This document shows positions 23,919-34,471 of a stretch of 64,000 nt of DNA, in pieces. Source of the DNA: Lacrimispora xylanolytica (lineage in GTDB: Bacteria; Bacillota; Clostridia; Lachnospirales; Lachnospiraceae); contig NZ_CP113524.1 of NCBI RefSeq assembly GCF_026723765.1, positions 3,767,001-3,831,000 on the forward strand, read 5' to 3'. The first letter of the stretch is position 1. Each line of letters starts with the position of its first letter. The position numbers and the translations under genes are program-made. The notes beneath the pieces are model-generated. The model was not told where the DNA came from and did no database searches. It saw only the letters and a program-made list of their open reading frames with translations.

Positions 23919-24779
23919 TCCGGCTTTTTTCCGGTATGCTGATGGAGTTTCATCCCCATGCTTTTTAAAAATCCGCTCAAAGTAAGTCACGCTTTCAAAG
24001 CCAAGAAGCCCTGAGATTTCCGTAATAGAATAATCACTGCTTCCAAGAAGCTCCTTTGCCTTTCTTACTCTAGCCAGATTGCGGTATTCGTTGACGGAAA
24101 ACCCGGTTACCTCCCGAAATATCCGGCTCAAATAGGACTTACTGATGAAAAACCTCATGGCAAGCTCCTCTAAGCTCTCTCCAGTCTCACAATGGGTGGT
24201 CAAATACTCTGCCACCTCATGAACCTTTCCATGCTTGGCTGTCTGAACGGGAGCCGGTATTTCCTTTAACACATTTTTCTTTCCAATCCGGTAAATTTGC
24301 AAAAGGATCTGAGACAGCTTTAAGCGGACCATGGTCTCGTAACGCTCCCCACGCTGCTTAAGCTCATCCCGGATTCCAAGTAAAAGAGCGTTCATCTCCT
24401 GCCACTCCAGCTCCGAGACCTTTAATACGCCATAATAATCTCCAAAGAGACGCCCCAGGGTATAGACGCCAGCACTTTTTAACCAGGGATCCAGAACCTT
24501 TTCGTTCAGCTGCAACAGGATCCGGTCATGTTTTCCGCTTCCTGCCTGGCTTGTTTTATGAACCTGCTCCCGGTTAATCAAGACCACGTCTCCTGCTTTC
24601 ACAAAATAAGTTTCTTTCTCAATAAAATAATACCGCTCTCCTTCCAGGAGAAAATAAAGCTCATAGGTATCATGAAAATGCTTCATGGTCATGGAAAATT
24701 CCTGGTCCCGCACTACCTGATCAATGGCGACCCCTTCCATGCTTTCCGAAAAAATAATTTTATCCACTCTTTCCTCCAT
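23901..24779 (-). CDS. AraC-family regulator with N-terminal cupin (second)
   Basis: A regulator of about 292 residues from the ATG at 24779. The start is uncertain: no good ribosome site precedes it, and a TTG at 24791 and a GTG just inside (after GGAGGA) are possible. The cupin part is visible (MKHFHDTYELYFLLEG, KAGDVVLINREQVH). The C-terminus has two AraC HTH motifs (SLEELAMRFFISKSYLSRIF; ITEISGLLGFESVTYFERIF). It is divergent from the GH4 gene at 24918, with a 28-bp palindrome in the shared gap, and is the likely regulator of that gene. Confidence 0.85.
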   Translation of the reverse strand: MEERVDKIIFSESMEGVAIDQVVRDQEFSMTMKHFHDTYELYFLLEGERYYFIEKETYFVKAGDVVLINREQVHKTSQAGSGKHDRILLQLNEKVLDPWLKSAGVYTLGRLFGDYYGVLKVSELEWQEMNALLLGIRDELKQRGERYETMVRLKLSQILLQIYRIGKKNVLKEIPAPVQTAKHGKVHEVAEYLTTHCETGESLEELAMRFFISKSYLSRIFREVTGFSVNEYRNLARVRKAKELLGSSDYSITEISGLLGFESVTYFERIFKKHGDETPSAYRKKAGRRESF

Positions 24780-24839
24780 ATTAGTAGTCAAAAGTACGAT
24801 TTCTATTAAAAAAGCATCAATTATATAAGATTTATAATA

Positions 24840-24867
24840 CTATATTGTATTATAATATGCAATATAG
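24840..24867. promoter_or_regulatory. 28-bp palindrome in the AraC / GH4 divergent promoter region
   Basis: CTATATTG (24840-24847) and CAATATAG (24860-24867) are perfect inverted arms around TATAAT (24851-24856), a candidate -10 for the GH4 gene. It is a plausible operator. Confidence 0.5.
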
Positions 24868-24917
24868 AGACCAAGAAAATACCCAAACATACAGCCAATC
24901 CACAGGAGGAACTTTTT

Positions 24918-26315
24918 ATGAATTACTCTGATAACAAGATCACGGATTTAAAGATCGCCTACATCGGCGGAGGCTCCAGAGGCTGGGCCTGGACCTTTAT
25001 GACTGACTTATCCATGGATGATTCCTTAAGCGGTACCATCCGGCTATACGATATTGATGAGTCTGCCTCCAAAAATAACGAGATCATCGGCAATCAGTTT
25101 TTAGCCAGAGAGGACACCATTGGGAAATGGAAGTATGAAACTTCCTCTTCCTTAAAGGATGCCTTGACCGGCTGCGATTTTGCAGTGATTTCTATTCTCC
25201 CAGGTACCTTTGATGAAATGGCTTCTGACGTTCATCTGCCGGAAAGACTTGGCATCTATCAGTCCGTAGGCGACACTGCAGGCCCTGGCGGAATGATCCG
25301 TGCTCTTCGCACCATTCCTATGTTTGTTACCATTGCCGAAGCCATAAAAGAATATGCACCTAAGGCATGGGTCATCAACTACACAAACCCAATGTCCTTA
25401 TGCGTAAAAACTCTGTATCATGTATTTCCGGAGATCAAGGCCTTTGGTTGCTGCCATGAGGTGTTCGGCACTCAGAAGGTATTAAAGGGAATTTGTGAAG
25501 AATTTCTCGGTCTTAAGGATGTGGAACGAAAGGATATCCATGTAAATGTTCTTGGTATCAACCACTTTACATGGTTTGACCAGGCTTCCTACAAAGGAAT
25601 CGATTTATTCCCCGTTTATCGCGATTACATCGATTCTCATTACGAAGAAGGCTACAATGAGCCGGATAAGAACTGGGCAAACAGTACCTTTGAATGTGCT
25701 CATCGTCTGAAATTTGATTTATTCCGCCGCTACGGCCTGATTGCAGCAGCCGGTGACCGTCACCTGGCTGAATTCATGCCAGGAGATGAATATTTAAAAA
25801 ATCCGGAAACAACAAAAAGCTGGAAATTCAATCTTACTACCGTTGCATGGAGAAAAGAAGATTTAAAGACACGACTGGAAAAGAGCCACCGCCTGGTCAC
25901 TGGAGAAGAAAAAATAGAATTAAAGCCATCGGGAGAGGAAGGAATTCTTTTAATCAAGTCTCTCTGCGGCCTGGAGCGGACCATCAGCAATGTAAATATT
26001 CCCAATACGTATTTACAGATTCCAAATCTCCCTGCAGATGCCATCGTTGAGACCAACGCTGCCTTTGACCGTGACAGCATTAAGCCTATTGTGGCCGGAG
26101 CTATCCCAGAGAATGTTCTGGAGCTGATTAAGCCTCACGTAGACAATCATGAGCGCATCTTAAACGCTGCCCTTACCTGCGACCGTTCTCTGGTCTACGA
26201 TGCCTTTTTAGCCGATCCTCTGGTAAAGGGAAGAGCCACAGAGGAAGAAATCAAGACTCTCGCCGATGATATGATCGCAAATACCATGGCATATCTGCCA
26301 GATGGCTGGAAATAA
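24918..26315 (+). CDS. lplD: Alpha-galacturonidase, GH4 (LplD type)
   Basis: A 465-residue NAD- and metal-dependent glycosidase. The Rossmann start is LKIAYIGGGSRGWAW (about 11-25). The metal-binding tetrapeptide is CHEV in GCCHEVFGTQ; from memory this variant marks the LplD alpha-galacturonidase clade of GH4, against CHSV or CNVP in other clades. The NYTNPM and GINHFTWF motifs bind substrate and metal. It acts in the cytoplasm, releasing galacturonate from pectin fragments, complementing the GH105 enzymes. CAGGAGG precedes the ATG. It is monocistronic and divergent from an AraC regulator. Confidence 0.88.
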   Translation: MNYSDNKITDLKIAYIGGGSRGWAWTFMTDLSMDDSLSGTIRLYDIDESASKNNEIIGNQFLAREDTIGKWKYETSSSLKDALTGCDFAVISILPGTFDEMASDVHLPERLGIYQSVGDTAGPGGMIRALRTIPMFVTIAEAIKEYAPKAWVINYTNPMSLCVKTLYHVFPEIKAFGCCHEVFGTQKVLKGICEEFLGLKDVERKDIHVNVLGINHFTWFDQASYKGIDLFPVYRDYIDSHYEEGYNEPDKNWANSTFECAHRLKFDLFRRYGLIAAAGDRHLAEFMPGDEYLKNPETTKSWKFNLTTVAWRKEDLKTRLEKSHRLVTGEEKIELKPSGEEGILLIKSLCGLERTISNVNIPNTYLQIPNLPADAIVETNAAFDRDSIKPIVAGAIPENVLELIKPHVDNHERILNAALTCDRSLVYDAFLADPLVKGRATEEEIKTLADDMIANTMAYLPDGWK

Positions 26316-26372
26316 CAGCCAAGCACAACAGGCTGCGTTTATTTTATCTCAGGAGTAACTATATTTAAAACT

Positions 26373-26474
26373 GGGTGTGTTACAAAATGAAATTTTCATA
26401 CAAGGCACGTGTGTTTATTAAACGTCTAAATAGCATGTCTTGTAGGTTCTTTTCATCTTGCAACACCCCCTTTT
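26373..26474 (+). terminator. Long imperfect hairpin after lplD
   Basis: GGGTGTGTTACAAAATGAAA (from 26373) pairs imperfectly with TTTTCATCTTGCAACACCCC, followed by CTTTTATT. Inside, ACAAGGCACGTG pairs with CATGTCTTGT. The ~100-nt stem is much longer than a usual terminator and could be a small palindromic element serving as one. Confidence 0.5.
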
Positions 26475-26494
26475 ATTAACATAAATACATGGGC

Positions 26495-27595
26495 TTATTT
26501 TGTCCAGCACTCAGTCACTTTCACGCTGTCGCCGTCCTCTTTAAAATGCAGGAACTGCATCACATCACCGGCAGTCTTTTCTCCGGTCGTTGAATCCTGT
26601 TTAGTGATTCTATAATGAATGGCCGCCCAATCTCCGCTGATTAGCATATTATCAAAGCGAATACGTTTTACATTCGTCGATTCGGCATTGTTCTTCTCCA
26701 ATGTTTTGTAATCCGATAAGGTCATGGTAGCGTCGTTGGTATGATACTGCAAGTTGCTGTCATAATAGGTGTCTGCCCATGCCGTCCAAGCATCCAAGCC
26801 CTGATTCCAGTTTTCAAAATCATTTAATATAGCATTTTGAATCTTCTTAGCCATATCGGTTTCAATCGGCGTAGGATTGGTGACAGGATACTTGTCTTTA
26901 AGATTTAATGTATCAGGAATCACTGTATTGACGATGGCATTTAATGCCTCCTGCTGTGCCGCTTTCGCATCGTCGGTCTGGAAACCAGTCAAACCATCAA
27001 AGTCCGCGCCCTTGGTTCCAGCCCAGCCTTCCACAACCCTAGTCCCCAGTTCCTCTCCGTAATCCTTGAATTGTACAAACTCCATCACACTCCCATCCGA
27101 AGATTTTCTGGTCTGTCGGTCGGTGGTTGATATATCATATCGAATTGCAGCCCAGTCGCCGCAGATGATCATATTATTGAAATTACCCATCTGAATATCG
27201 CTGGACTTCAGTGTCGCATTCATGGAAGACTGATATTCCTTCAAGGTGAGTCTTACACCGTGGACGTTATAAAAGGAATCATCGGTGTACAGAATGTCGC
27301 CCCATTTTTCCCACGCATCATAGCCTCTGTTCCAGTTTTCAAACCCATTTAATAATCTATTTTGAATGTTTTTTTCCATGTCTGTTTCTATTGGGGTGGG
27401 ATTGACGATTGGAAAAACAGCAGAAAGTTCTTTCGTGTTATCATAGCGATCGGAGATACTGATCACAGATTCATCGGAGCTTATGTTTGTGGCTTCTTTG
27501 GTAACAATCGTATTGGTTTTGGATCCACAGCCAACAGCAGCAGCCCCGATGGCCAAGGTTGTTACACTCATTCTTAATACCTTTTTTATATTCAT
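26495..27595 (-). CDS. Lipoprotein with two SnoaL/NTF2-like domains
   Basis: A protein of 366 residues. The signal peptide ends in AAAVGC with lipid-anchored Cys23. Two copies of one domain follow, at about 70-190 and 245-365. Each carries FENWNxGxDAW, a TL-x-[ED]-Y segment, and [FN]NM[IL]I-x-GDWAAI-x-Y, ending in VMxF-x-F-K-[DE]. The same domain stands alone in the next gene (27640). NTF2/SnoaL folds form a cone-shaped pocket that binds or converts small hydrophobic molecules; no catalytic residues can be assigned. GAGGAG lies 12 nt before the ATG. It probably shares the promoter at 28337 and is thus linked to the two-component system at 28441-30157. Confidence 0.8.
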   Translation of the reverse strand: MNIKKVLRMSVTTLAIGAAAVGCGSKTNTIVTKEATNISSDESVISISDRYDNTKELSAVFPIVNPTPIETDMEKNIQNRLLNGFENWNRGYDAWEKWGDILYTDDSFYNVHGVRLTLKEYQSSMNATLKSSDIQMGNFNNMIICGDWAAIRYDISTTDRQTRKSSDGSVMEFVQFKDYGEELGTRVVEGWAGTKGADFDGLTGFQTDDAKAAQQEALNAIVNTVIPDTLNLKDKYPVTNPTPIETDMAKKIQNAILNDFENWNQGLDAWTAWADTYYDSNLQYHTNDATMTLSDYKTLEKNNAESTNVKRIRFDNMLISGDWAAIHYRITKQDSTTGEKTAGDVMQFLHFKEDGDSVKVTECWTK

Positions 27596-27639
27596 TTTCG
27601 TAATAATTCTCCTCTCATAATCTAAACGAGTCTATTGGC

Positions 27640-28146
27640 TTATTGTTTTATGGATAACGGACTGTCGGACAACGCCCACCCCTCTACAACTCTGACTCCG
27701 CGCTCATCACCATTGTCCTTGAATCTTACGAACTCCATGGTATGCTGGAGGATTTCAGTACCCGTGTCTAAATTTTTCACCTTCACAGTATAGCGAATTG
27801 CACACCAGTTATCTTTAATGATCATGTTGTCAAATTTGCCCAGTTCCATTGTGAAATGTTGAAAAAGCTGTCCCATCATGCTCTTGTACTCTTCCAGTGT
27901 ACAGCGGCGCTGGGTACCATTATAAGGAATGTTGTAATATGCATCCGGCTCATATAAAGTGTTACACCACTCAAGCCAGCCGTCATAGCCACCATTCCAG
28001 TTTTTAAAGCCATTCTCTAAACGGTTGCGGATAGCTTCCTCTAGTGCCGTCTGGTACGTGGTCTGGCTAGTCATTTCATCTATAAGGGCATAGGTATCCA
28101 CAATGCCGGCCTTATCCATCTGATTTTTAACATTGTAATTATTCAT
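27640..28146 (-). CDS. SnoaL/NTF2-like protein, single domain
   Basis: A 168-residue soluble protein from the ATG at 28146, with GAAAGGAAG 8 nt upstream; an in-frame TTG at 28164 lies within that ribosome site and is rejected. It shows the same signature as the lipoprotein downstream: FKNWNGGYDGW, LEEYKSMM, FDNMIIKDNWCAIRY, HTMEFVRFKD. It has no signal peptide, so it acts in the cytoplasm. It lies 44 nt before the lipoprotein gene. The ligand is unknown. Confidence 0.82.
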   Translation of the reverse strand: MNNYNVKNQMDKAGIVDTYALIDEMTSQTTYQTALEEAIRNRLENGFKNWNGGYDGWLEWCNTLYEPDAYYNIPYNGTQRRCTLEEYKSMMGQLFQHFTMELGKFDNMIIKDNWCAIRYTVKVKNLDTGTEILQHTMEFVRFKDNGDERGVRVVEGWALSDSPLSIKQ

Positions 28147-28188
28147 AATTGTACTTCCTTTCAAAATGTTAATCTAAAGTTTGTTTTT

Positions 28189-28284
28189 TCAAATACTTGC
28201 TTTTATATCTGCCGTCATACATAAGGCAAGGACTGGAAATCCATGATTATTGCAGTGGCACATATTTTGCAGCTGAAATGCCAT
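28189..28284 (-). CDS. Candidate 31-residue Cys-rich small protein
   Basis: An ORF starting at ATG 28284, preceded by GGAAGGAG at good spacing (9 nt), stopping at 28189. The peptide holds Cys9, Cys11 and Cys22 and the motif CHCNNHGFPV, which could bind a metal. It lies in the leader between the regulated promoter (28337) and the SnoaL gene, 42 nt upstream of the latter. It could be a true small protein or a leader peptide. The strong ribosome site is the main evidence; no relatives are known to me. Confidence 0.5.
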   Translation of the reverse strand: MAFQLQNMCHCNNHGFPVLALCMTADIKASI

Positions 28285-28336
28285 ATAGTCAATCTCCTTC
28301 CTTGATATTGCTGTTGTGATTTCGTGCTATGAACAT

Positions 28337-28373
28337 ATCTTAATGGGCGAAGGTTGAACGAAAGTAAAAAAAG
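28337..28373 (-). promoter_or_regulatory. Predicted response-regulator-controlled promoter of the SnoaL operon
   Basis: On the minus strand the block TTTACTTTCGTTCAACCTT lies directly upstream of TAAGAT (28342-28337). The same block lies at exactly the same distance from TATAAT in the promoter of the response regulator gene (30186-30222). No -35 consensus exists in either, as expected for activator-dependent promoters. The leader to the SnoaL start is about 185 nt. Confidence 0.6.
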
Positions 28374-28392
28374 CAAAAATTATGAAAGAAAA

Positions 28393-28436
28393 AAAGCGTA
28401 AACCAAACATACGTCTGATTTACGCTTTTTTTTCCA
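28393..28436 (-). terminator. Terminator of the two-component operon
   Basis: AAAGCGTAAA pairs with TTTACGCTTT, with T-runs on both sides; it lies five bases after the kinase stop. Confidence 0.8.
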
Positions 28437-28440
28437 TTCC

Positions 28441-29475
28441 TTAGATGGGTAACGTGATTAAAAAGGTACTTCCCTCTTGAGGTTTACTTTCTACGCAAAT
28501 GCTACCCCCACAAAGAGTAATAATGCGGGAAACAATGGAAAGGCCAATACCGCTGCCTCTTACGGCAGAGGTAGTATCGTGCTGATAATATTTTTCAAAA
28601 ATATGTGCGGCGGTTTCTTCGTCCATACCTATACCGCTGTCGAAAAATTTAAGAGTAATCTCATTAGAGGTACACTTTGCGGCTATTTTAATTTCCCCAT
28701 GTTCAGGGGTGAATTTAATGGCATTAGTAAGAACATTAATCCATACCTGTTCCATCAGCTCCGCATTGCCCACATAACAAATATCGTCTACATCCAGTTC
28801 CAGCTCTATCTTCTTCTGTTCAATTTTCGGCAGCAGCAGGATAGCACACCGCTTTATTTGTTCGGATAAATTGTATGCTTCTTTTTCGGTGATAATTTCG
28901 CAGGCCTCCACCTTGGAAAGCAGAAGTGTGGACTGCGACAAGGTGGACAAACGAAGAGATTCATCGGCAATGATCTGAAGATATTGATTGCGTTCCGTGT
29001 TTTCTATGTCATCTCCTGTGTCAATAAGGTATTGTGCAAATCCTGAAATTGAAGTAATAGGTGTATTGAATTCATGTGAAAAATCATTGATAAAGTTTTG
29101 CATTTCTGTTTTTGTATTTTTAAGCTCTGCTGCCATACGATTAAACCCATCATAGATTGGTGCATATTCATCTGCCTTTTTGCAGTCTAGCTGTACGTCC
29201 AGATTGCCATTGGATACTTCTTTTATACCAATTAACAGATCATCCATTTTTCTGCGAACAGACCGCAGTGTGAAAACCGTTCCCAAACTGACTGCAAGAA
29301 TCATAAGTGGTATGATTGCCAGCATAGAAAGCGCATTTTCCGAATTCATGCCAAGCCAGCATGTAGCAATAAGCCCATAGGCCATCACAGCACCAACAAC
29401 TACGATTGAGTCTGCAACGAAAACCCACTTAAATTGAATCAGTTTAAAGGTTGATTCTTTTTTATACTGTTTCAT
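28441..29475 (-). CDS. Sensor histidine kinase (HAMP, HisKA, HATPase)
   Basis: A 344-residue membrane kinase. Two transmembrane helices (about 18-40 and 50-70) with a very short loop leave almost no extracellular sensor. HAMP follows (about 71-125), then the H-box FSHEFNTPITSI with His134, N-box and G-boxes (GSGIGLSIVSRI). Kinases with such a small loop often sense membrane or partner signals. It overlaps the regulator gene by 14 bp, so the two are coupled. Confidence 0.92.
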   Translation of the reverse strand: MKQYKKESTFKLIQFKWVFVADSIVVVGAVMAYGLIATCWLGMNSENALSMLAIIPLMILAVSLGTVFTLRSVRRKMDDLLIGIKEVSNGNLDVQLDCKKADEYAPIYDGFNRMAAELKNTKTEMQNFINDFSHEFNTPITSISGFAQYLIDTGDDIENTERNQYLQIIADESLRLSTLSQSTLLLSKVEACEIITEKEAYNLSEQIKRCAILLLPKIEQKKIELELDVDDICYVGNAELMEQVWINVLTNAIKFTPEHGEIKIAAKCTSNEITLKFFDSGIGMDEETAAHIFEKYYQHDTTSAVRGSGIGLSIVSRIITLCGGSICVESKPQEGSTFLITLPI

Positions 29476-30157
29476 GGCTGCCTCCTATCTTATGAATGAC
29501 AGCTTTATATCCCAGTCCGCGAATGGATACCAACTCGAATTCTCTGCACATCGAAAGCTTGTTGCGCAGGCGGCTGATGTAGGTTTTAATAGTATCGTAC
29601 TCTGTCTCAGAATCACATCCCCAAATCCCGTCCATTAGCTGCTGTTTGGTGAATACCACATTGGGGTAGGAGAGAAACTTGTACAGCAGGTTGAATTCCT
29701 TGTTTGTCAACGAGATCGTTTCGCCGTTATACTGAGTTGATAAAGTGTTCTGTTCCATAGTAAAACCACCGATAACGATACGGTTTTCGTTAGCAATCTG
29801 TGCTCGCCTCATCAGTGCCTTAATACGCCAAATAAGTTCCTCGTAGTCGATGGGTTTTGTCATGTAATCATCTACGCCGGATGCAAATCCTTCTTTTTTG
29901 TGTGTAAAGGTATTCATCGCCGTCAGCATAATGACTGGTGTCATATCACCCACATCCCGCAGGGCACGTACCAACTCATATCCATTCATGTTTGGCATTT
30001 GAATATCCACAATGAGTAGATCAACATGTACGTGGTCGAGAACTTCTAACGCTTCTTCGCCATCAGCAGCTTCTTTTATTTTATATAGGTGACTAAGTTT
30101 TGTTTTTGTTAAAAGACGTACCATCTGATCATCTTCTACGATAAGAATTGTAACCAT
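29462..30157 (-). CDS. Response regulator, OmpR/PhoB family
   Basis: A 231-residue protein. The receiver has VEDD and phospho-acceptor Asp51 (LLIVDIQMPN), MLTA and Lys (MTKPI). The C-terminal winged helix follows (LTNKEFNLLYKFLSYPNVVFTK; YISRLRNKL). GGAGGG precedes the ATG. It probably binds the sequence block shared by its own promoter and that of the SnoaL operon, which would make it autoregulated. Confidence 0.93.
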   Translation of the reverse strand: MVTILIVEDDQMVRLLTKTKLSHLYKIKEAADGEEALEVLDHVHVDLLIVDIQMPNMNGYELVRALRDVGDMTPVIMLTAMNTFTHKKEGFASGVDDYMTKPIDYEELIWRIKALMRRAQIANENRIVIGGFTMEQNTLSTQYNGETISLTNKEFNLLYKFLSYPNVVFTKQQLMDGIWGCDSETEYDTIKTYISRLRNKLSMCREFELVSIRGLGYKAVIHKIGGSHETV

Positions 30158-30185
30158 ACATGCCCTCCTTTAAAAGTTAATATAC

Positions 30186-30222
30186 ATTATATCTGCAAAA
30201 GGTTGAACGAAAGTAAAAAAAT
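30186..30222 (-). promoter_or_regulatory. Predicted autoregulated promoter of the two-component operon
   Basis: The minus-strand block TTTACTTTCGTTCAACCTT lies upstream of TATAAT (30191-30186), identical in sequence and spacing to the SnoaL operon promoter. Confidence 0.6.
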
Positions 30223-30248
30223 GTGAACCATTTTACACAATTAAAAAA

Positions 30249-30307
30249 GAGACAACCGAAACACTACTATGCCAGATCCGGCAATAAGCGGTATTTCCAG
30301 TTATCTC
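30249..30307 (-). terminator. Terminator of the yfcE-rlmL-rdgB operon
   Basis: On the minus strand GAGATAACTG pairs with CGGTTGTCTC, followed by TTTTTT, just after the stop at 30317. Confidence 0.6.
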
Positions 30308-30316
30308 TCTCCTTTC

Positions 30317-30808
30317 TTAAGCTCCCAGGAAATTTAGGGTAAAATGGGCCTCACCCGTCTCATCCACTTCCATGATCATATAAGATGGCTTACGCCCCTC
30401 CTGTCTTGGATAAGACAGGCTGCCTGGATTTAAAACGATAACTCCGTTATGTACCTCATAAAACGGACGGTGGGTGTGACCATACATAACGATATCAAGA
30501 TTCCTCTCCCTGGCCTCCAGCTCCAGACGTTCCACGCCAAGAGAAACATTGTAATAATGACCGTGAGTTAAAAGAATCCTGTATTTACCGATAGTAATCT
30601 CCTTTTCCCGGTCAAGATCGGAAAAAAAGTCATTGTTCCCAAGAACCATATGGACCTGACAGTTTTCCCCTGCCCAGCCGGTAATCTTCTCCTCACTTCC
30701 TTCCGAGTCACCAAGATGGATAAGCATATCAAAAGGGCCGGATTCTGTAATAATCTTATAGAGGCTGTCATCTTTTCTGTGAGTGTCACTGACGATCAGT
30801 ACTTTCAT
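30317..30808 (-). CDS. Metallophosphoesterase, YfcE/MJ0936 family (first)
   Basis: A 163-residue phosphodiesterase with the dinuclear metal motifs SDTHRK (8-13 region), HLGDSEG, LGNNDF, LTHGHYY and YGHTHRP. The family hydrolyses model phosphodiesters; the cellular substrate is unknown. It starts one base after the rdgB stop with GGAGGAAG before the ATG. A second family member stands at the head of the same operon (33923). Confidence 0.9.
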   Translation of the reverse strand: MKVLIVSDTHRKDDSLYKIITESGPFDMLIHLGDSEGSEEKITGWAGENCQVHMVLGNNDFFSDLDREKEITIGKYRILLTHGHYYNVSLGVERLELEARERNLDIVMYGHTHRPFYEVHNGVIVLNPGSLSYPRQEGRKPSYMIMEVDETGEAHFTLNFLGA

Positions 30809-30809
30809 C

Positions 30810-31418
30810 CTACTTCCTCCCGTAATATTCCATAAGCTTGCATTTCATCGCATCCAGTGCCTTACCCCGGTGGCTGATCTTGTTTTTCTCTTCCATGGTA
30901 AGCTCTGCCGCTGTTTTTTGAAACTCAGGCAGATAAAAAATGGGATCGTATCCAAAGCCCTCTTCTCCTGCAGGGTTGTCCGCCAAAATTCCTTCCATGG
31001 TTTCTTCTGTATGAAGCACATTTCCATCTGGCAGAACTGCCGCTATACTGCAGACAAACCGGGCGCTTCGTTCGTCTCCTCTGGCCTTTGCCGCACGGTT
31101 TAAGAGATTCTGATTCTTAATCTCGTAGGAGGTATCCTCTCCCATGTACCTGGCAGAATAAATTCCCGGCTCTCCGTTTAAACAGTCAATGACAAGACCG
31201 GAATCATCAGCAAGTACGATGCCTCCTGTCTTTTCCCATACAGCTCTGGCTTTAATCTCTGCATTTTCCAAAAAGGTGGAACCATCTTCTACTATGTTAA
31301 GATCAGCTCCTGCCTCTTTCATGGAAAGGATTTTCATACCCAGGTCCTTTAAAATCTCCCGGATCTCCCTCATCTTTCCTTCGTTTCCAGTTGCAAAAAT
31401 TATCTTATCCTCGTTCAT
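30810..31418 (-). CDS. rdgB: XTP/dITP diphosphatase RdgB (Ham1)
   Basis: A 202-residue house-cleaning enzyme that removes ITP, dITP and XTP from the nucleotide pool. Family motifs: FATGNEGKMREI at the start, LADDSGLVID, GEPGIYSAR, EEGFGYDPIFY, and KNKISHRGKALDAM at the end. AAGGAG precedes the ATG. Confidence 0.95.
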   Translation of the reverse strand: MNEDKIIFATGNEGKMREIREILKDLGMKILSMKEAGADLNIVEDGSTFLENAEIKARAVWEKTGGIVLADDSGLVIDCLNGEPGIYSARYMGEDTSYEIKNQNLLNRAAKARGDERSARFVCSIAAVLPDGNVLHTEETMEGILADNPAGEEGFGYDPIFYLPEFQKTAAELTMEEKNKISHRGKALDAMKCKLMEYYGRK

Positions 31419-31442
31419 TGATACTCTCCTTTATCACCAGCC

Positions 31443-32762
31443 CTATCGGTCTGTCGTATACGCTTTTAAGCAAAGATTGCAGTCCTGCTTTTTCTCCACC
31501 CGCTCCCAGTGATTGCCATCGGGGCTTAAATAGCCTTCCCCATCAGATAAGTCCACAAGGGTTCGCCCATCTCCTGTATCATACTCGATGGCTGCAGGGT
31601 GAATGGCATCTGGTGTGGTGATCTTTACCATAACCGCAAATCGTTCTCCCTTATTAAGCTTTTGCTCTTCCTTTAAGCTGCCGGTAACAGGAACCGTATA
31701 ATAACCGGCATTGATAAAGCTCCCCTTTGCTAACAGCACCTTCCGGTCGAAATCCCCGCCGCTTACGATCGCAGCCTCGTCACTTACCTTCCCCACTCCA
31801 TATATTTCATAGGAGGTGTTTTTAGCTGTTGCATAAAAGCCAACTGCAGACAAAGCCTCATCACCTTCTGCTTCGTAAACATTGGAAATCCAGATGGTAT
31901 CTTCTCCATACCCCAGCTGTCCTACCCAGCCTCTTAAATCAGACTGGTAGATATGGCTGTAATTGTCCGTATCTTCCGTCAGGGAATATACCAGATTATT
32001 CATTCCAATATTGGAATCATAATATGACACATAATAATAGCCCTGCTCTCCAAAGCCTTTCCCCCAGCTGTTCAAACAAATAAATGCCCCGTTTCCGTTC
32101 ACCGGCTCATTAAAATTCTCCTTGGGATAATGATCGTCCCAGCCAATGATTACAGAATCGTGGTTTGGAGGCTCAGAGCCAATATAGCAATACGCATATG
32201 CCTTTTCATTGTAGGAGGCGGAACGGCTGTTTTCATCGGTCATGGAGGTATATAGGGAACTCTGTACCCCGCCATAGCGTAGAACCGCCTGTTTTATTTT
32301 TTCATAATCCTTACCGGGAATCATCTGAACTTCCTGGACATGCTTGACCGCTTTTAATCCCTTTGGAGAAACGCCATCTCCATAAGGATCCTGTTCTTCC
32401 AGAACCGGTCCCTTCCAGGAGAGGAGATAAGCTAAAGACATGGTGAATTCACCGCCCTCTTCCTGAGGGATGGAAAAACCATTCCCGAGGGACATATGGT
32501 CTTCGGAAAAATCCTTAGATTCTCCTAGCAGCAGGCTGGCCTCCAGTGCCTGAAGGGAGGCAAAGGCCCAGCAGGTTCCAAGGTTTCCCTGGTTTTTAAC
32601 GGCTGGCACCCTGCCCTTTTTTCTCCCATCATAGGAGGCAGGAAGGGCACCGTTATATTCCGTCACCTTTCCTGCTTCTGGTTGTTCGGGAGTTTTGTAT
32701 TGACATCCCACGATACTACAGACTGCGAAAAAAATGACGGCAATCCATTTTTTAATTTTCAA
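31443..32762 (-). CDS. Papain-like (C1A) cysteine peptidase lipoprotein with lectin-like C-terminus
   Basis: A protein of 439 residues starting at TTG 32762, with AGGAG six bases upstream inside the end of the methyltransferase gene. The signal peptide ends in SIVGC (Cys20). The catalytic triad is visible: oxyanion Gln58 and Cys64 in NQGNLGTCWAFA, His in NHDSVIIGWDDHY, and Asn in CLNSWGKGFG. The C-terminal ~170 residues resemble the lectin-like domain common after bacterial C1A peptidases. It acts at the outer face of the membrane. It is odd in an operon of nucleotide and RNA enzymes, but the 11-bp overlap and 24-bp gap show co-transcription. Confidence 0.9.
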   Translation of the reverse strand: MKIKKWIAVIFFAVCSIVGCQYKTPEQPEAGKVTEYNGALPASYDGRKKGRVPAVKNQGNLGTCWAFASLQALEASLLLGESKDFSEDHMSLGNGFSIPQEEGGEFTMSLAYLLSWKGPVLEEQDPYGDGVSPKGLKAVKHVQEVQMIPGKDYEKIKQAVLRYGGVQSSLYTSMTDENSRSASYNEKAYAYCYIGSEPPNHDSVIIGWDDHYPKENFNEPVNGNGAFICLNSWGKGFGEQGYYYVSYYDSNIGMNNLVYSLTEDTDNYSHIYQSDLRGWVGQLGYGEDTIWISNVYEAEGDEALSAVGFYATAKNTSYEIYGVGKVSDEAAIVSGGDFDRKVLLAKGSFINAGYYTVPVTGSLKEEQKLNKGERFAVMVKITTPDAIHPAAIEYDTGDGRTLVDLSDGEGYLSPDGNHWERVEKKQDCNLCLKAYTTDR

Positions 32763-33921
32763 CCGAATCTCCTGTTTTTCTTTTTGGAGGCTTTGGCCCC
32801 ATAAACTGATAGAAATAGGTCTTCATCATACCGTTATAGATCTTACGGTTCTTATCTGCTTTTCTTCCAATGTATTTTTCCGCGTCTTCATAGGCCGTGA
32901 TCATATACAGGGACCAGGCATCAAGGGCTTTGTAACGCTCGCCGATCTGACGGTAGAGCTCAGGAAGATTCTTTTTCTCTTCAATTCGCTCACCATAAGG
33001 CGGGTTGGTGATGACAAATCCATATTTTTTCGGATGGCTTAATGCATTCACTGGTCTTTGCTGGAAATGGATCATATGCTCTACGCCTGCAGAGGCTGCA
33101 TTGGATTTTGCTGCTTTTATGATCTCAGGATCGATATCATATCCCTGTAAATCTACTTTTACATCCTGATCCACCAGATCATTGGCTTCATCCATAGCAT
33201 CGTACCAGCATTTTCTTGGAATCAGATTCTTCCAGTCTTCGGAAAGGAAGGAACGATTCATGCCAGGAGCCATATTCGCAGCCATCATAGCCGCTTCAAT
33301 TAAAAAGGTACCGCTACCGCAGAACGGGTCCACTAAAATACGATCCTTATTCCATGGAGTCAGCATAATGAGGGCTGCTGCAAGAGTCTCTGTAATAGGA
33401 GCCTTACTGGTAAGGGTTCTGTAGCCTCTCTTATGAAGAGAATCTCCTGTGGTATCGATTCCCACAGTTACCTCATCTTTGTAAAGAAATACTCTGATAG
33501 GATAAGAGCTTCCTTTTTCTTCGAACCATTCCACACCGTAAGACTTTTTCATTCGTTCCACCATTGCCTTTTTCATGATGGACTGAATGTCAGAGGGACT
33601 GAACAGCTTACTCTTTATTGAGGAAGCCTTGGCAACCCAGAATTTACCGTCCTGGGGAATATACTCCTCCCAGGCAATGGATTTTGTTCCCTGAAAAAGA
33701 TCCTCAAAGGATTCCGCATGAAAGGTGCCTGCCTTTAAAAGCACACGCTCTGCGGTACGAAGAAAGATATTTGCCCGGCAGATGGCTTCATCATCACCAA
33801 TAAATGTCACTCTTCCATCTTCAACGGTTGTAATGTCATATCCTAAATCTGTTATTTCTTTTTTTAATACCGCTTCCATGCCAAAATGACAGGGTGCGAT
33901 CAATTCAAATGTTCTTTTCAC
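32752..33921 (-). CDS. rlmL: 23S rRNA (guanine-N2)-methyltransferase, RlmL/YpsC type
   Basis: A 389-residue THUMP-containing methyltransferase. Residues 1-165 hold the ferredoxin-like and THUMP RNA-binding part. The SAM domain shows DPFCGSGTFLIEAA and the N2-guanine motif NPPYGERI. The start is GTG at 33921 with AGGAG upstream. It lies one base after the yfcE-type gene. The protein is single-domain, unlike the enterobacterial RlmKL fusion. Confidence 0.9.
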   Translation of the reverse strand: MKRTFELIAPCHFGMEAVLKKEITDLGYDITTVEDGRVTFIGDDEAICRANIFLRTAERVLLKAGTFHAESFEDLFQGTKSIAWEEYIPQDGKFWVAKASSIKSKLFSPSDIQSIMKKAMVERMKKSYGVEWFEEKGSSYPIRVFLYKDEVTVGIDTTGDSLHKRGYRTLTSKAPITETLAAALIMLTPWNKDRILVDPFCGSGTFLIEAAMMAANMAPGMNRSFLSEDWKNLIPRKCWYDAMDEANDLVDQDVKVDLQGYDIDPEIIKAAKSNAASAGVEHMIHFQQRPVNALSHPKKYGFVITNPPYGERIEEKKNLPELYRQIGERYKALDAWSLYMITAYEDAEKYIGRKADKNRKIYNGMMKTYFYQFMGPKPPKRKTGDSVEN

Positions 33922-33922
33922 C

Positions 33923-34471
33923 TTATTCTCCTAAGTCTATTTCTTTTTGTACATTTCCCTCAAAATCCAGGATACGAAATACCTGTTCTTCCAGTATTCC
34001 ATAGGTTGGCGGATTACCGCCCTTTGGAATGGATACAGAACCGGGATTTAATATGGTAATGTCTCCTTCCCGCTCTGCAGTCAGGATGTGTGTATGGCCA
34101 TGAAGGAGAATATCTCCCTTTTGTACCGGCGGCAGATGATCTTTATGATAGATGTGACCATGTGTGAGATAGATTGTCAGACCGTTTACTACCAACAGTC
34201 CATAATCTGCCAGTACCGGAAATTCCAGTACCATCTGATCTACTTCCGTGTCACAGTTTCCTCTCACACTATAGATCTGGTCCTTTATGCCATTTAACAT
34301 AGAAATGACCGCTTTCGGATCGTAATCCCTTGGAAGGTCATTCCTGGGACCATGATACAAAATATCCCCTAACAAAATCAGCCGGCTGGCACCGGACTTT
34401 CTATATTCATCTAACAGGAGCCCACAGTAGTAGGCTGACCCATGAATGTCAGAAGCAATCATATATTTCAT
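33923..34471 (-). CDS. yfcE: Metallophosphoesterase, YfcE family (second)
   Basis: A 182-residue phosphodiesterase with motifs SDIHGS, LLGDILYHGPRN, VRGNCDTE, LTHGHIYH and HGHTHI. It is closer to E. coli YfcE than the copy at 30317 (184 residues there). It is the first gene of the operon yfcE - rlmL - peptidase - rdgB - yfcE-like, with GAAGGAG before the ATG and its own promoter at 34503-34531. Confidence 0.92.
   Translation of the reverse strand: MKYMIASDIHGSAYYCGLLLDEYRKSGASRLILLGDILYHGPRNDLPRDYDPKAVISMLNGIKDQIYSVRGNCDTEVDQMVLEFPVLADYGLLVVNGLTIYLTHGHIYHKDHLPPVQKGDILLHGHTHILTAEREGDITILNPGSVSIPKGGNPPTYGILEEQVFRILDFEGNVQKEIDLGE

What the first reader, a model, noticed from the sequence alone, without database searches (positions are those of the whole stretch)
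28189..30222. OmpR-type two-component system with a shared operator driving an NTF2-like operon
A 23-nt identical block (sense TTTACTTTCGTTCAACCTT plus flanking T) lies at the same distance from the -10 in two promoters: that of the regulator gene and that of the SnoaL operon. Neither has a -35 consensus. This predicts one small regulon: kinase, regulator, a small Cys peptide, a cytoplasmic NTF2 protein and a tandem NTF2 lipoprotein. I know no described system of this composition.
Basis: partly seen in the sequence, partly recalled or inferred. Interest (0 to 1): 0.7.

Follow-up and report, generated by a model that had tools for sequence, protein, structure and literature searches.

The report
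Mobile self-regulated sensor–NTF2 lipoprotein cassette
A small block of genes that appears to have moved between unrelated bacteria carries its own membrane sensor and switch protein, and that switch appears to turn on both itself and a surface protein of the kind that binds or modifies steroid- or polyketide-like molecules; the pairing is real and we found no description of it, but what it senses is unknown.

Summary
The 23-nt block is present exactly twice and its core ends 7 nt before the -10 in both promoters; no other genomic match has under 3 mismatches. All 6 retrieved loci with a close (79-100% identical) kinase and regulator carry the block in both promoters, while flanks diverge; one distant homologue (L013, 55-58%) lacks it.

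The block reads as a direct repeat, TTTAC-N6-TCAAC-N10-(-10). Regulator promoters of a second lineage paired with the same NTF2 family show this geometry too; in reverse complement it resembles the SaeR box.

The unit, window 26316-30241, is a clean insertion: 4 of 4 fetched sister genomes have an empty site. Its proteins are 76-87% identical to those of organisms whose RdgB is 43-48% identical, so it was probably transferred horizontally. The kinase is of the intramembrane-sensing type; the lipoprotein model has two SnoaL-like folds.

The 'small Cys peptide' is not supported. Best reading: a mobile, autoinduced sense-and-respond cassette, organised like SaePQRS, for a hydrophobic compound or membrane disturbance; ligand and NTF2 activity are inferred.

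The parts
26316..30241 (.). Inserted cassette (3926 bp) holding all parts below
   Evidence: Absent from 4 of 4 fetched sister genomes, whose flanks join directly; lipoprotein in 2 of 25 genus genomes, both same species, while the flanking phosphoesterase is in 24 of 25
29462..30157 (-). OmpR/PhoB-type response regulator, 231 aa (type A)
   Evidence: Response_reg 2.5e-27 and Trans_reg_C 5.8e-18; orthologues 85-87% identical in L006, L007, L008, L010, L016
28441..29475 (-). Histidine kinase, 344 aa, two TM helices with a loop of about 7-15 aa (intramembrane-sensing type), HAMP, HisKA, HATPase
   Evidence: Pfam, hydropathy and conservation by region, orthologues 79-86% identical
30199..30221 (-). 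Operator block of the regulator promoter (autoregulation)
30186..30191 (-). -10 TATAAT of the regulator promoter
28350..28372 (-). Operator block of the output promoter
28337..28342 (-). -10 TAAGAT of the output promoter; identical in the output promoters of all 6 retrieved type-A loci
28389..28432 (.). Terminator-like hairpin between kinase and output operon
   Evidence: 20-nt arms, 90% complementary; -26.3 kcal/mol, z -7.8 on the minus strand; not listed by the rule-based terminator scan
27640..28149 (-). Cytoplasmic NTF2/SnoaL-like protein, 169 aa
   Evidence: SnoaL_2 8.7e-05, below the curated cut-off; 45% identical to domain 1 of the lipoprotein
26495..27595 (-). Tandem NTF2/SnoaL-like lipoprotein, 366 aa, Cys23 lipobox by eye
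   Evidence: SnoaL_2 5.8e-07, above cut-off; alignment A1; model pLDDT 81.5 with two NTF2 folds; PDB matches SnoaL2, ChaU, KSI-like
28189..28284 (-).
   Evidence: translation; no Pfam family; full matches only in same-species loci

Best explanation
A horizontally mobile, self-contained sense-and-respond cassette. Step 1 (inferred from the anatomy): an intramembrane-sensing kinase detects a hydrophobic, membrane-partitioning compound or the membrane disturbance it causes. Step 2 (established for the families): it phosphorylates its OmpR-type regulator. Step 3 (strong footprint, binding not shown): the regulator binds TTTAC-N6-TCAAC, a direct repeat that lies where a -35 would be, 10 nt from the -10, and switches on two promoters, the only ones with the block in this genome: its own and that of the NTF2 operon. 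Step 4 (inferred from fold and company): the NTF2 proteins, one inside and one tethered outside, bind or chemically alter the compound. In relatives a 3beta-HSD/epimerase-like dehydrogenase or an amidohydrolase joins them. Loss of the compound, or contact of the lipoprotein with the kinase, then shuts the loop off, much as SaePQ do for SaeS. Steps 1 and 4 are the weak ones.
For: Two operators, none other under 3 mismatches in the genome. Both present in all 6 retrieved loci with a close system: within a locus (window plus 5) 16-19 of 19 block positions agree between the two promoters against 11-25 of 60 upstream. Repeat geometry (gap 6, distance 10) is the top of 176 combinations tested, both in 8 type-A promoters and in 14 type-B promoters, with 0 of 500 shuffles reaching either value. 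The unit is one insertion. In 344 genomes of the P. oralis family the type-A kinase occurs in 4, each beside the lipoprotein. 11 of 18 NTF2 loci lie next to an OmpR-type system of one of at least three lineages. The TM helices are as conserved as the catalytic parts (19/26 and 17/22 invariant against 48/67 and 75/108). Single domains of the model match polyketide and steroid enzymes and a designed vitamin-D3 binder. A dehydrogenase homologue (55-80% identical) sits in one type-A locus and beside two type-B systems.
Against: No binding, expression or phenotype data. 7 of 18 NTF2 loci have no such system nearby; three of them are close lipoprotein homologues (70-74% identical) without the block and one, in Bacillus haynesii (70%), lies in a genome without any regulator hit at E 1e-50, so the lipoprotein can exist without this kinase. 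The type-A-like pair of L013 (58% and 55%) has no block within 4 mismatches. Pocket and catalytic residues were not tested. An iota-carbonic anhydrase ranks second in the fold search, so the chemistry is open. Type-B output promoters fit the operator geometry poorly (10-11 of 16), and the type-A promoters are orthologous copies, not independent samples.
Confidence: 0.55

Rival explanations
1. The NTF2 lipoprotein is mainly a regulator of the kinase, as SaeP is of SaeS: it is induced by the regulator, binds the short loop or TM helices, and returns the kinase to its phosphatase state; it is not an enzyme or a binder of an outside compound.
For: Kinase without an outside sensor domain; lipoprotein behind the same operator as the regulator; SaePQ precedent (PMC4388633; PMC5083920). 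Type-B loci L009, L013, L014 and L046 add a small membrane protein, homologous among them, which could act like SaeQ.
Against: The lipoprotein or its relatives also occur without a kinase in 7 of 18 loci; a soluble cytoplasmic NTF2 copy in the same operon, and dehydrogenase or amidohydrolase genes in relatives, point to chemistry.
Confidence: 0.25
2. The NTF2 lipoprotein is a co-sensor: it captures the ligand outside the membrane and presents it to the kinase.
For: Intramembrane-sensing kinases are said to need partners (PMC4388633, passage); linkage of the type-A kinase to the lipoprotein, 4 of 4 in the sample.
Against: A sensor made only after induction would be unusual, although basal expression would suffice; no kinase lies nearby in 7 of 18 loci.
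Confidence: 0.15
3. The shared block is a recent duplication of promoter DNA with no regulator bound to it.
For: Identical 23 nt within this genome.
Against: The block is kept in both places in all 6 retrieved type-A loci while neighbouring DNA differs; the geometry recurs with a different regulator lineage.
Confidence: 0.04

Closest known systems
SaePQRS of Staphylococcus aureus
   Same: Intramembrane-sensing kinase with a short outside loop, two-component regulator, autoinduced promoter for a lipoprotein, direct-repeat operator with 5-bp half-sites 6 bp apart (GTTAA-N6-GTTAA; here GTTGA-N6-GTAAA in reverse complement). Source: passages of PMC5083920 and PMC4388633.
   Different: Lipoprotein is a 366-aa tandem NTF2 protein, SaeP is 146 aa; no SaeQ-like gene in type A; only two operators found here against over 20 virulence factors under SaeRS; in Sae the regulator pair also has a constitutive promoter. 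No sequence comparison with SaeP or SaeQ was made.
Bce- and Lia-type intramembrane-sensing systems
   Same: Kinase architecture and probable envelope sensing (PMC4388633 passage).
   Different: No ABC transporter gene seen among the ORFs of the insertion; LiaF was not searched for.
SnoaL / NTF2-like enzymes (SnoaL2, ChaU, AclR, IdmH, ketosteroid isomerase-like)
   Same: Fold of a single domain: TM-score by target length mostly 0.6-0.77 among the listed single-domain matches; Pfam SnoaL_2.
   Different: Listed targets are mostly single domains of 117-169 residues; here two domains, lipid-anchored, under a two-component system; 9-18% identity in the listed rows.
ECF41 sigma factors with SnoaL-like domain
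   Same: SnoaL-like domain linked with gene regulation (PMC8999054 passages).
   Different: There the domain is fused to a sigma factor; here it is a separate exported protein.

Membership tests
OmpR/PhoB-type two-component system | Receiver plus winged-helix regulator; HisKA plus HATPase kinase, adjacent genes | tested here: met
OmpR/PhoB-type two-component system | Direct-repeat operator with a period near one helical turn | tested here: met
   TTTAC-N6-TCAAC, 11-bp period; gap 6 is best of 16 gaps on the + strand and in the 176-cell grid. Binding itself untested.
Intramembrane-sensing histidine kinase | Two TM helices, linker under 25 aa, no outside domain | tested here: met
   Main hydropathy peaks 18-36 and 52-70; definition from PMC4388633
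Intramembrane-sensing histidine kinase | Needs an accessory partner to sense | not testable with these tools
   needs experiment
SaePQRS | Lipoprotein operon behind the regulator's own box | tested here: met
   Same block in front of regulator and lipoprotein operon; induction itself not tested
SaePQRS | SaeP/SaeQ orthologues | not tested
   SaeP and SaeQ were not fetched; lipoprotein lengths differ (146 aa against 366 aa). Not filed as a member.
SnoaL/NTF2-like superfamily | NTF2 fold | tested here: met
   Model and Foldseek; Pfam SnoaL_2 above cut-off for the lipoprotein, below it for the cytoplasmic protein
SnoaL/NTF2-like superfamily | Cyclase/isomerase/hydrolase active site | not tested
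   No residue-level comparison made
Bce-type module | BceAB-like ABC transporter beside the kinase | tested here: not met
   No transporter among the ORFs of the insertion

The most novel reading that the evidence does not exclude
A new class of mobile small-molecule response cassette in Gram-positive bacteria: an intramembrane-sensing kinase that detects a steroid- or polyketide-like lipophile in the membrane and induces, through one shared operator, SnoaL/KSI-fold proteins on both faces of the membrane that destroy or sequester the inducer. At least two kinase/regulator lineages have been paired with this NTF2 family and keep the same operator geometry at their own promoters.
Probability: 0.3. 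Interest if true: 0.75.

Novelty: new variant of a known kind. Interest (0 to 1): 0.55.

Why it matters
It gives a compact, portable regulon with one sensor, one regulator, two operators and one output operon, in which signal and function can be found together. If the NTF2 lipoprotein degrades or binds the inducer, it would be a SnoaL-type protein at the cell surface under two-component control, possibly a new way for Gram-positive bacteria to respond to antimicrobial lipophiles. It also offers a SaePQRS-like loop outside staphylococci in which to test how an intramembrane-sensing kinase talks to a lipoprotein.

Tried and rejected
Small Cys peptide as a part: rejected. Full matches lie only in same-species loci, the other three rows being partial at E 0.66-0.92. 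At its Shine-Dalgarno position relatives start the lipoprotein (L006, L008) or a dehydrogenase (L007). The 53-aa ORF 28215-28376 matches L006, L007 and L008 only within its first 20 codons, which are the promoter itself.

Operator models. An 11-mer half-site model (TTTCGTTCAAC) gave p 0 to 0.136 in 8 type-A promoters (in W_out the best placement was another register) and p below 0.05 in only 2 of 15 type-B promoters. The TTAAC half-site was chosen after reading the type-B promoters and with the SaeR box in mind, so only the spacing and distance comparison is a fair control. Rows dropped: L008 and L016 as near copies; L016 in the column conservation and the kinase conservation; L046_DUF (51 nt) between (15 promoters; 14). 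L048 and L056 are in set B although no NTF2 hit lies beside them. L014 is cut by its contig and was left out of alignment A1. A degenerate block pattern in 398 genomes hit 6 besides the own one, once each, and its reversed control also hit 6; I took these as chance and did not inspect them.

Distribution: no match to the lipoprotein in the phage and plasmid collections; the phylum draw gave 1 of 398 genomes, the own one. Rfam at gathering thresholds: 0 matches in 24000-34000. Base composition does not mark the insertion: 40.8% against 42.6 and 41.8% in the flanks. No target-site duplication was seen by eye. Sequence search of the PDB with the lipoprotein profile gave nothing credible (best E 0.097). 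Literature: 10 searches. Those aimed at SnoaL/NTF2 or ketosteroid-isomerase proteins with two-component systems listed no paper that I could recognise as describing this pairing. I saw passages of PMC11237479, PMC8999054, PMC5481530, PMC4388633 and PMC5083920 and only listings of the rest.

Full report
What is there. The minus strand of window 26495-30157 encodes, in order of transcription, an OmpR-type regulator, a histidine kinase, a strong hairpin, a second promoter, a cytoplasmic NTF2-like protein and a 366-aa NTF2-like lipoprotein. The hairpin looks like a terminator but the rule-based scan did not list it. The 23-nt block TTTTTTTACTTTCGTTCAACCTT is present twice, 28350-28372 and 30199-30221. 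Its core has 0.02 expected chance matches in the window. In the 4.5-Mb genome the next matches need 3 mismatches, the level at which the reversed control also matches. The repeat followed by 10 nt and a -10 of the form TANNNT occurs only at these two places in the window.

Conservation of the block. A search for relatives of the lipoprotein found 12 loci. Six of them (L005, the same species as the window, recorded as Clostridium sp. 12(A); L006 Paenibacillus oralis; L007 a Bacillota MAG; L008 P. macerans; L010 and L016 P. massiliensis) carry a close regulator and kinase (regulator 85-87%, kinase 79-86% outside the own species). All six have the block in both places with 0-2 mismatches. A seventh, L013, has a more distant type-A-like regulator (58%) and kinase (55%) and no block within 4 mismatches. 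Within a locus (window, L006, L007, L008, L010, L016) the two promoters agree at 16-19 of 19 block positions, but at only 11-25 of the 60 positions upstream and 12-21 of the 60 downstream. The -10 is TAAGAT in every one of these output promoters and TATAAT, TATACT or TATGCT in the regulator promoters. Among the 72 loci held, the pattern TTTAC-N6-TCAAC-N10-TANNNT occurs in 24, all of them stretches of the genomes of these type-A loci, and at most twice in each.

Geometry. The block reads as two half-sites 11 bp apart, TTTAC-N6-TCAAC. Four other loci from the same search (L009, L012, L013, L014) and a second place in P. oralis (L046) pair NTF2 proteins with a different OmpR-type system, 39-42% identical to type A in its regulator. 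I scored two TTAAC-like half-sites and a -10 over 176 combinations of gap and distance. Gap 6 with distance 10 came first in 8 type-A promoters (12.5; next 11.75) and, separately, in 14 type-B promoters (11.86; next 11.36), with 0 of 500 shuffles as high in either set. The type-A promoters are orthologous copies, so they are not independent. All 7 type-B regulator promoters scored 12-14 of 16; the 7 type-B output promoters scored only 10-11 and several placements look unconvincing, so the type-B signal comes from the regulators' own promoters. An earlier 11-mer model was mostly not significant in type B. In reverse complement the repeat resembles the SaeR box GTTAA-N6-GTTAA (PMC5083920, passages).

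A mobile unit. Window 26316-30241 is missing from the four sister genomes that I fetched (G398, G407, G399, G409, the nearest other species by phosphoesterase identity), in which the flanking genes lie side by side. In the genus the lipoprotein is in 2 of 25 genomes, both of the same species, while the neighbouring phosphoesterase is in 24 of 25. The cassette proteins (lipoprotein 76-82%, regulator 85-87%, kinase 79-86% in the type-A loci) are far more alike than RdgB, which is 43-48% identical between the window and six of the other genomes. This is best explained by horizontal transfer of the regulon; the direction is not known. I recognised no integrase among its ORFs and no target duplication.

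Linkage. In 344 genomes sampled from the family of P. oralis the lipoprotein profile hits 7 (E 1e-7, best 5 candidates scored per genome) and the type-A kinase profile hits 4 (E 1e-90, best 6 scored), each beside the lipoprotein. Pooling all loci found through NTF2 queries and merging same-species copies gives 18 loci: 11 lie beside an OmpR-type system (L005 standing for the window, L006, L007, L008, L010, L009, L012, L013, L014, L032, L046) and 7 do not (L011, L015, L030, L031, L066, L067, L068). L015 has only 0.5 kb upstream and L014 ends at its contig edge. With an assumed chance rate of 5% or 15% the binomial tail is 1e-10 or 1e-5; the rate is my assumption and the loci are related by descent. 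Against my reading, L066-L068 are close homologues (70-74%) with neither system nor block.

What the proteins say. The kinase has two hydrophobic helices, peaks at residues 18-36 and 52-70, with little between them, which is the intramembrane-sensing design (definition from PMC4388633). Its helices are as conserved as its catalytic parts; from general knowledge, sensor regions usually diverge faster. The lipoprotein model (pLDDT 81.5, pTM 0.79; residues 1-49 below 50) has two NTF2 folds. Foldseek lists first the lasalocid epoxide hydrolase and iota-carbonic anhydrase over the whole chain (poor superposition, rmsd 17-19), then single-domain matches to ChaU, SnoaL2, AclR, IdmH, ketosteroid isomerase-like proteins and designed vitamin-D3 binders. 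In relatives the output includes a dehydrogenase with Pfam 3Beta_HSD and Epimerase matches: L007 inside the type-A output operon, L009 (80% identical) near its type-B system, L056 (55%) beside a type-B system that has no NTF2 hit nearby. L046 has an amidohydrolase between two NTF2-like genes that match the window's proteins at 24-31% but lie below the Pfam cut-offs.

Mechanism. I judge the regulatory half (autoregulation plus activation of the NTF2 operon through a repeat in place of the -35) likely, about 0.85, though binding is not shown. The functional half, response to a hydrophobic compound or membrane disturbance by proteins that bind or alter it, rests on fold, membrane sensing and gene company, about 0.45. 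SaePQRS is the closest working model: SaePQ, induced by phosphorylated SaeR, turn SaeS into a phosphatase (PMC4388633). The lipoprotein here may do the same, so feedback and chemistry are not exclusive.

Novelty. All parts belong to known families; the combination, the shared operator and the mobility as one unit I did not find described in the searches listed under Tried and rejected. I call it a new variant of a known kind.

Noticed in passing
26377-26477: A roughly 100-nt palindromic element (GTGTT...AACACCCC; -35.1 kcal/mol for 26365-26480 on the minus strand) just inside the left end of the insertion; two other copies in the genome at 71-73% identity. Possibly a small mobile repeat.
   Followed up: partly
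L013:4952-9851: A Pseudobutyrivibrio MAG carries both system types at one place: type-B system, small membrane protein and NTF2 lipoprotein lie between a type-A-like regulator (58%) and a type-A-like kinase (55%, contig end).
   Followed up: partly
L067:4438-5343 and L068:7520-8422: Two kinase-less NTF2 lipoprotein loci share a similar divergent gene, in L067 matching DAGK_cat and YegS_C (L068 judged by eye), hinting at a lipid connection.
   Followed up: no
L009:7107-8010 and L011:7500-8010: Short ORFs of about 28-32 aa that look by eye like membrane peptides, behind good ribosome sites upstream of the NTF2 genes; not similar to the window's 31-aa ORF by eye (sequence).
   Followed up: no
L013:7598-7975, L014:7303-7680, L046:9041-9427, L009:12480-12851: A family of small (123-128 aa) membrane proteins next to type-B systems; no Pfam match for the L013 copy and no NCBIfam match for the L009 and L046 copies. 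A candidate SaeQ-like partner.
   Followed up: partly
L031:7022-8005: Tandem NTF2 gene without a signal peptide by eye, interrupted by one TAG, next to genes that look by eye like alcohol dehydrogenases and a carboxylesterase.
   Followed up: no
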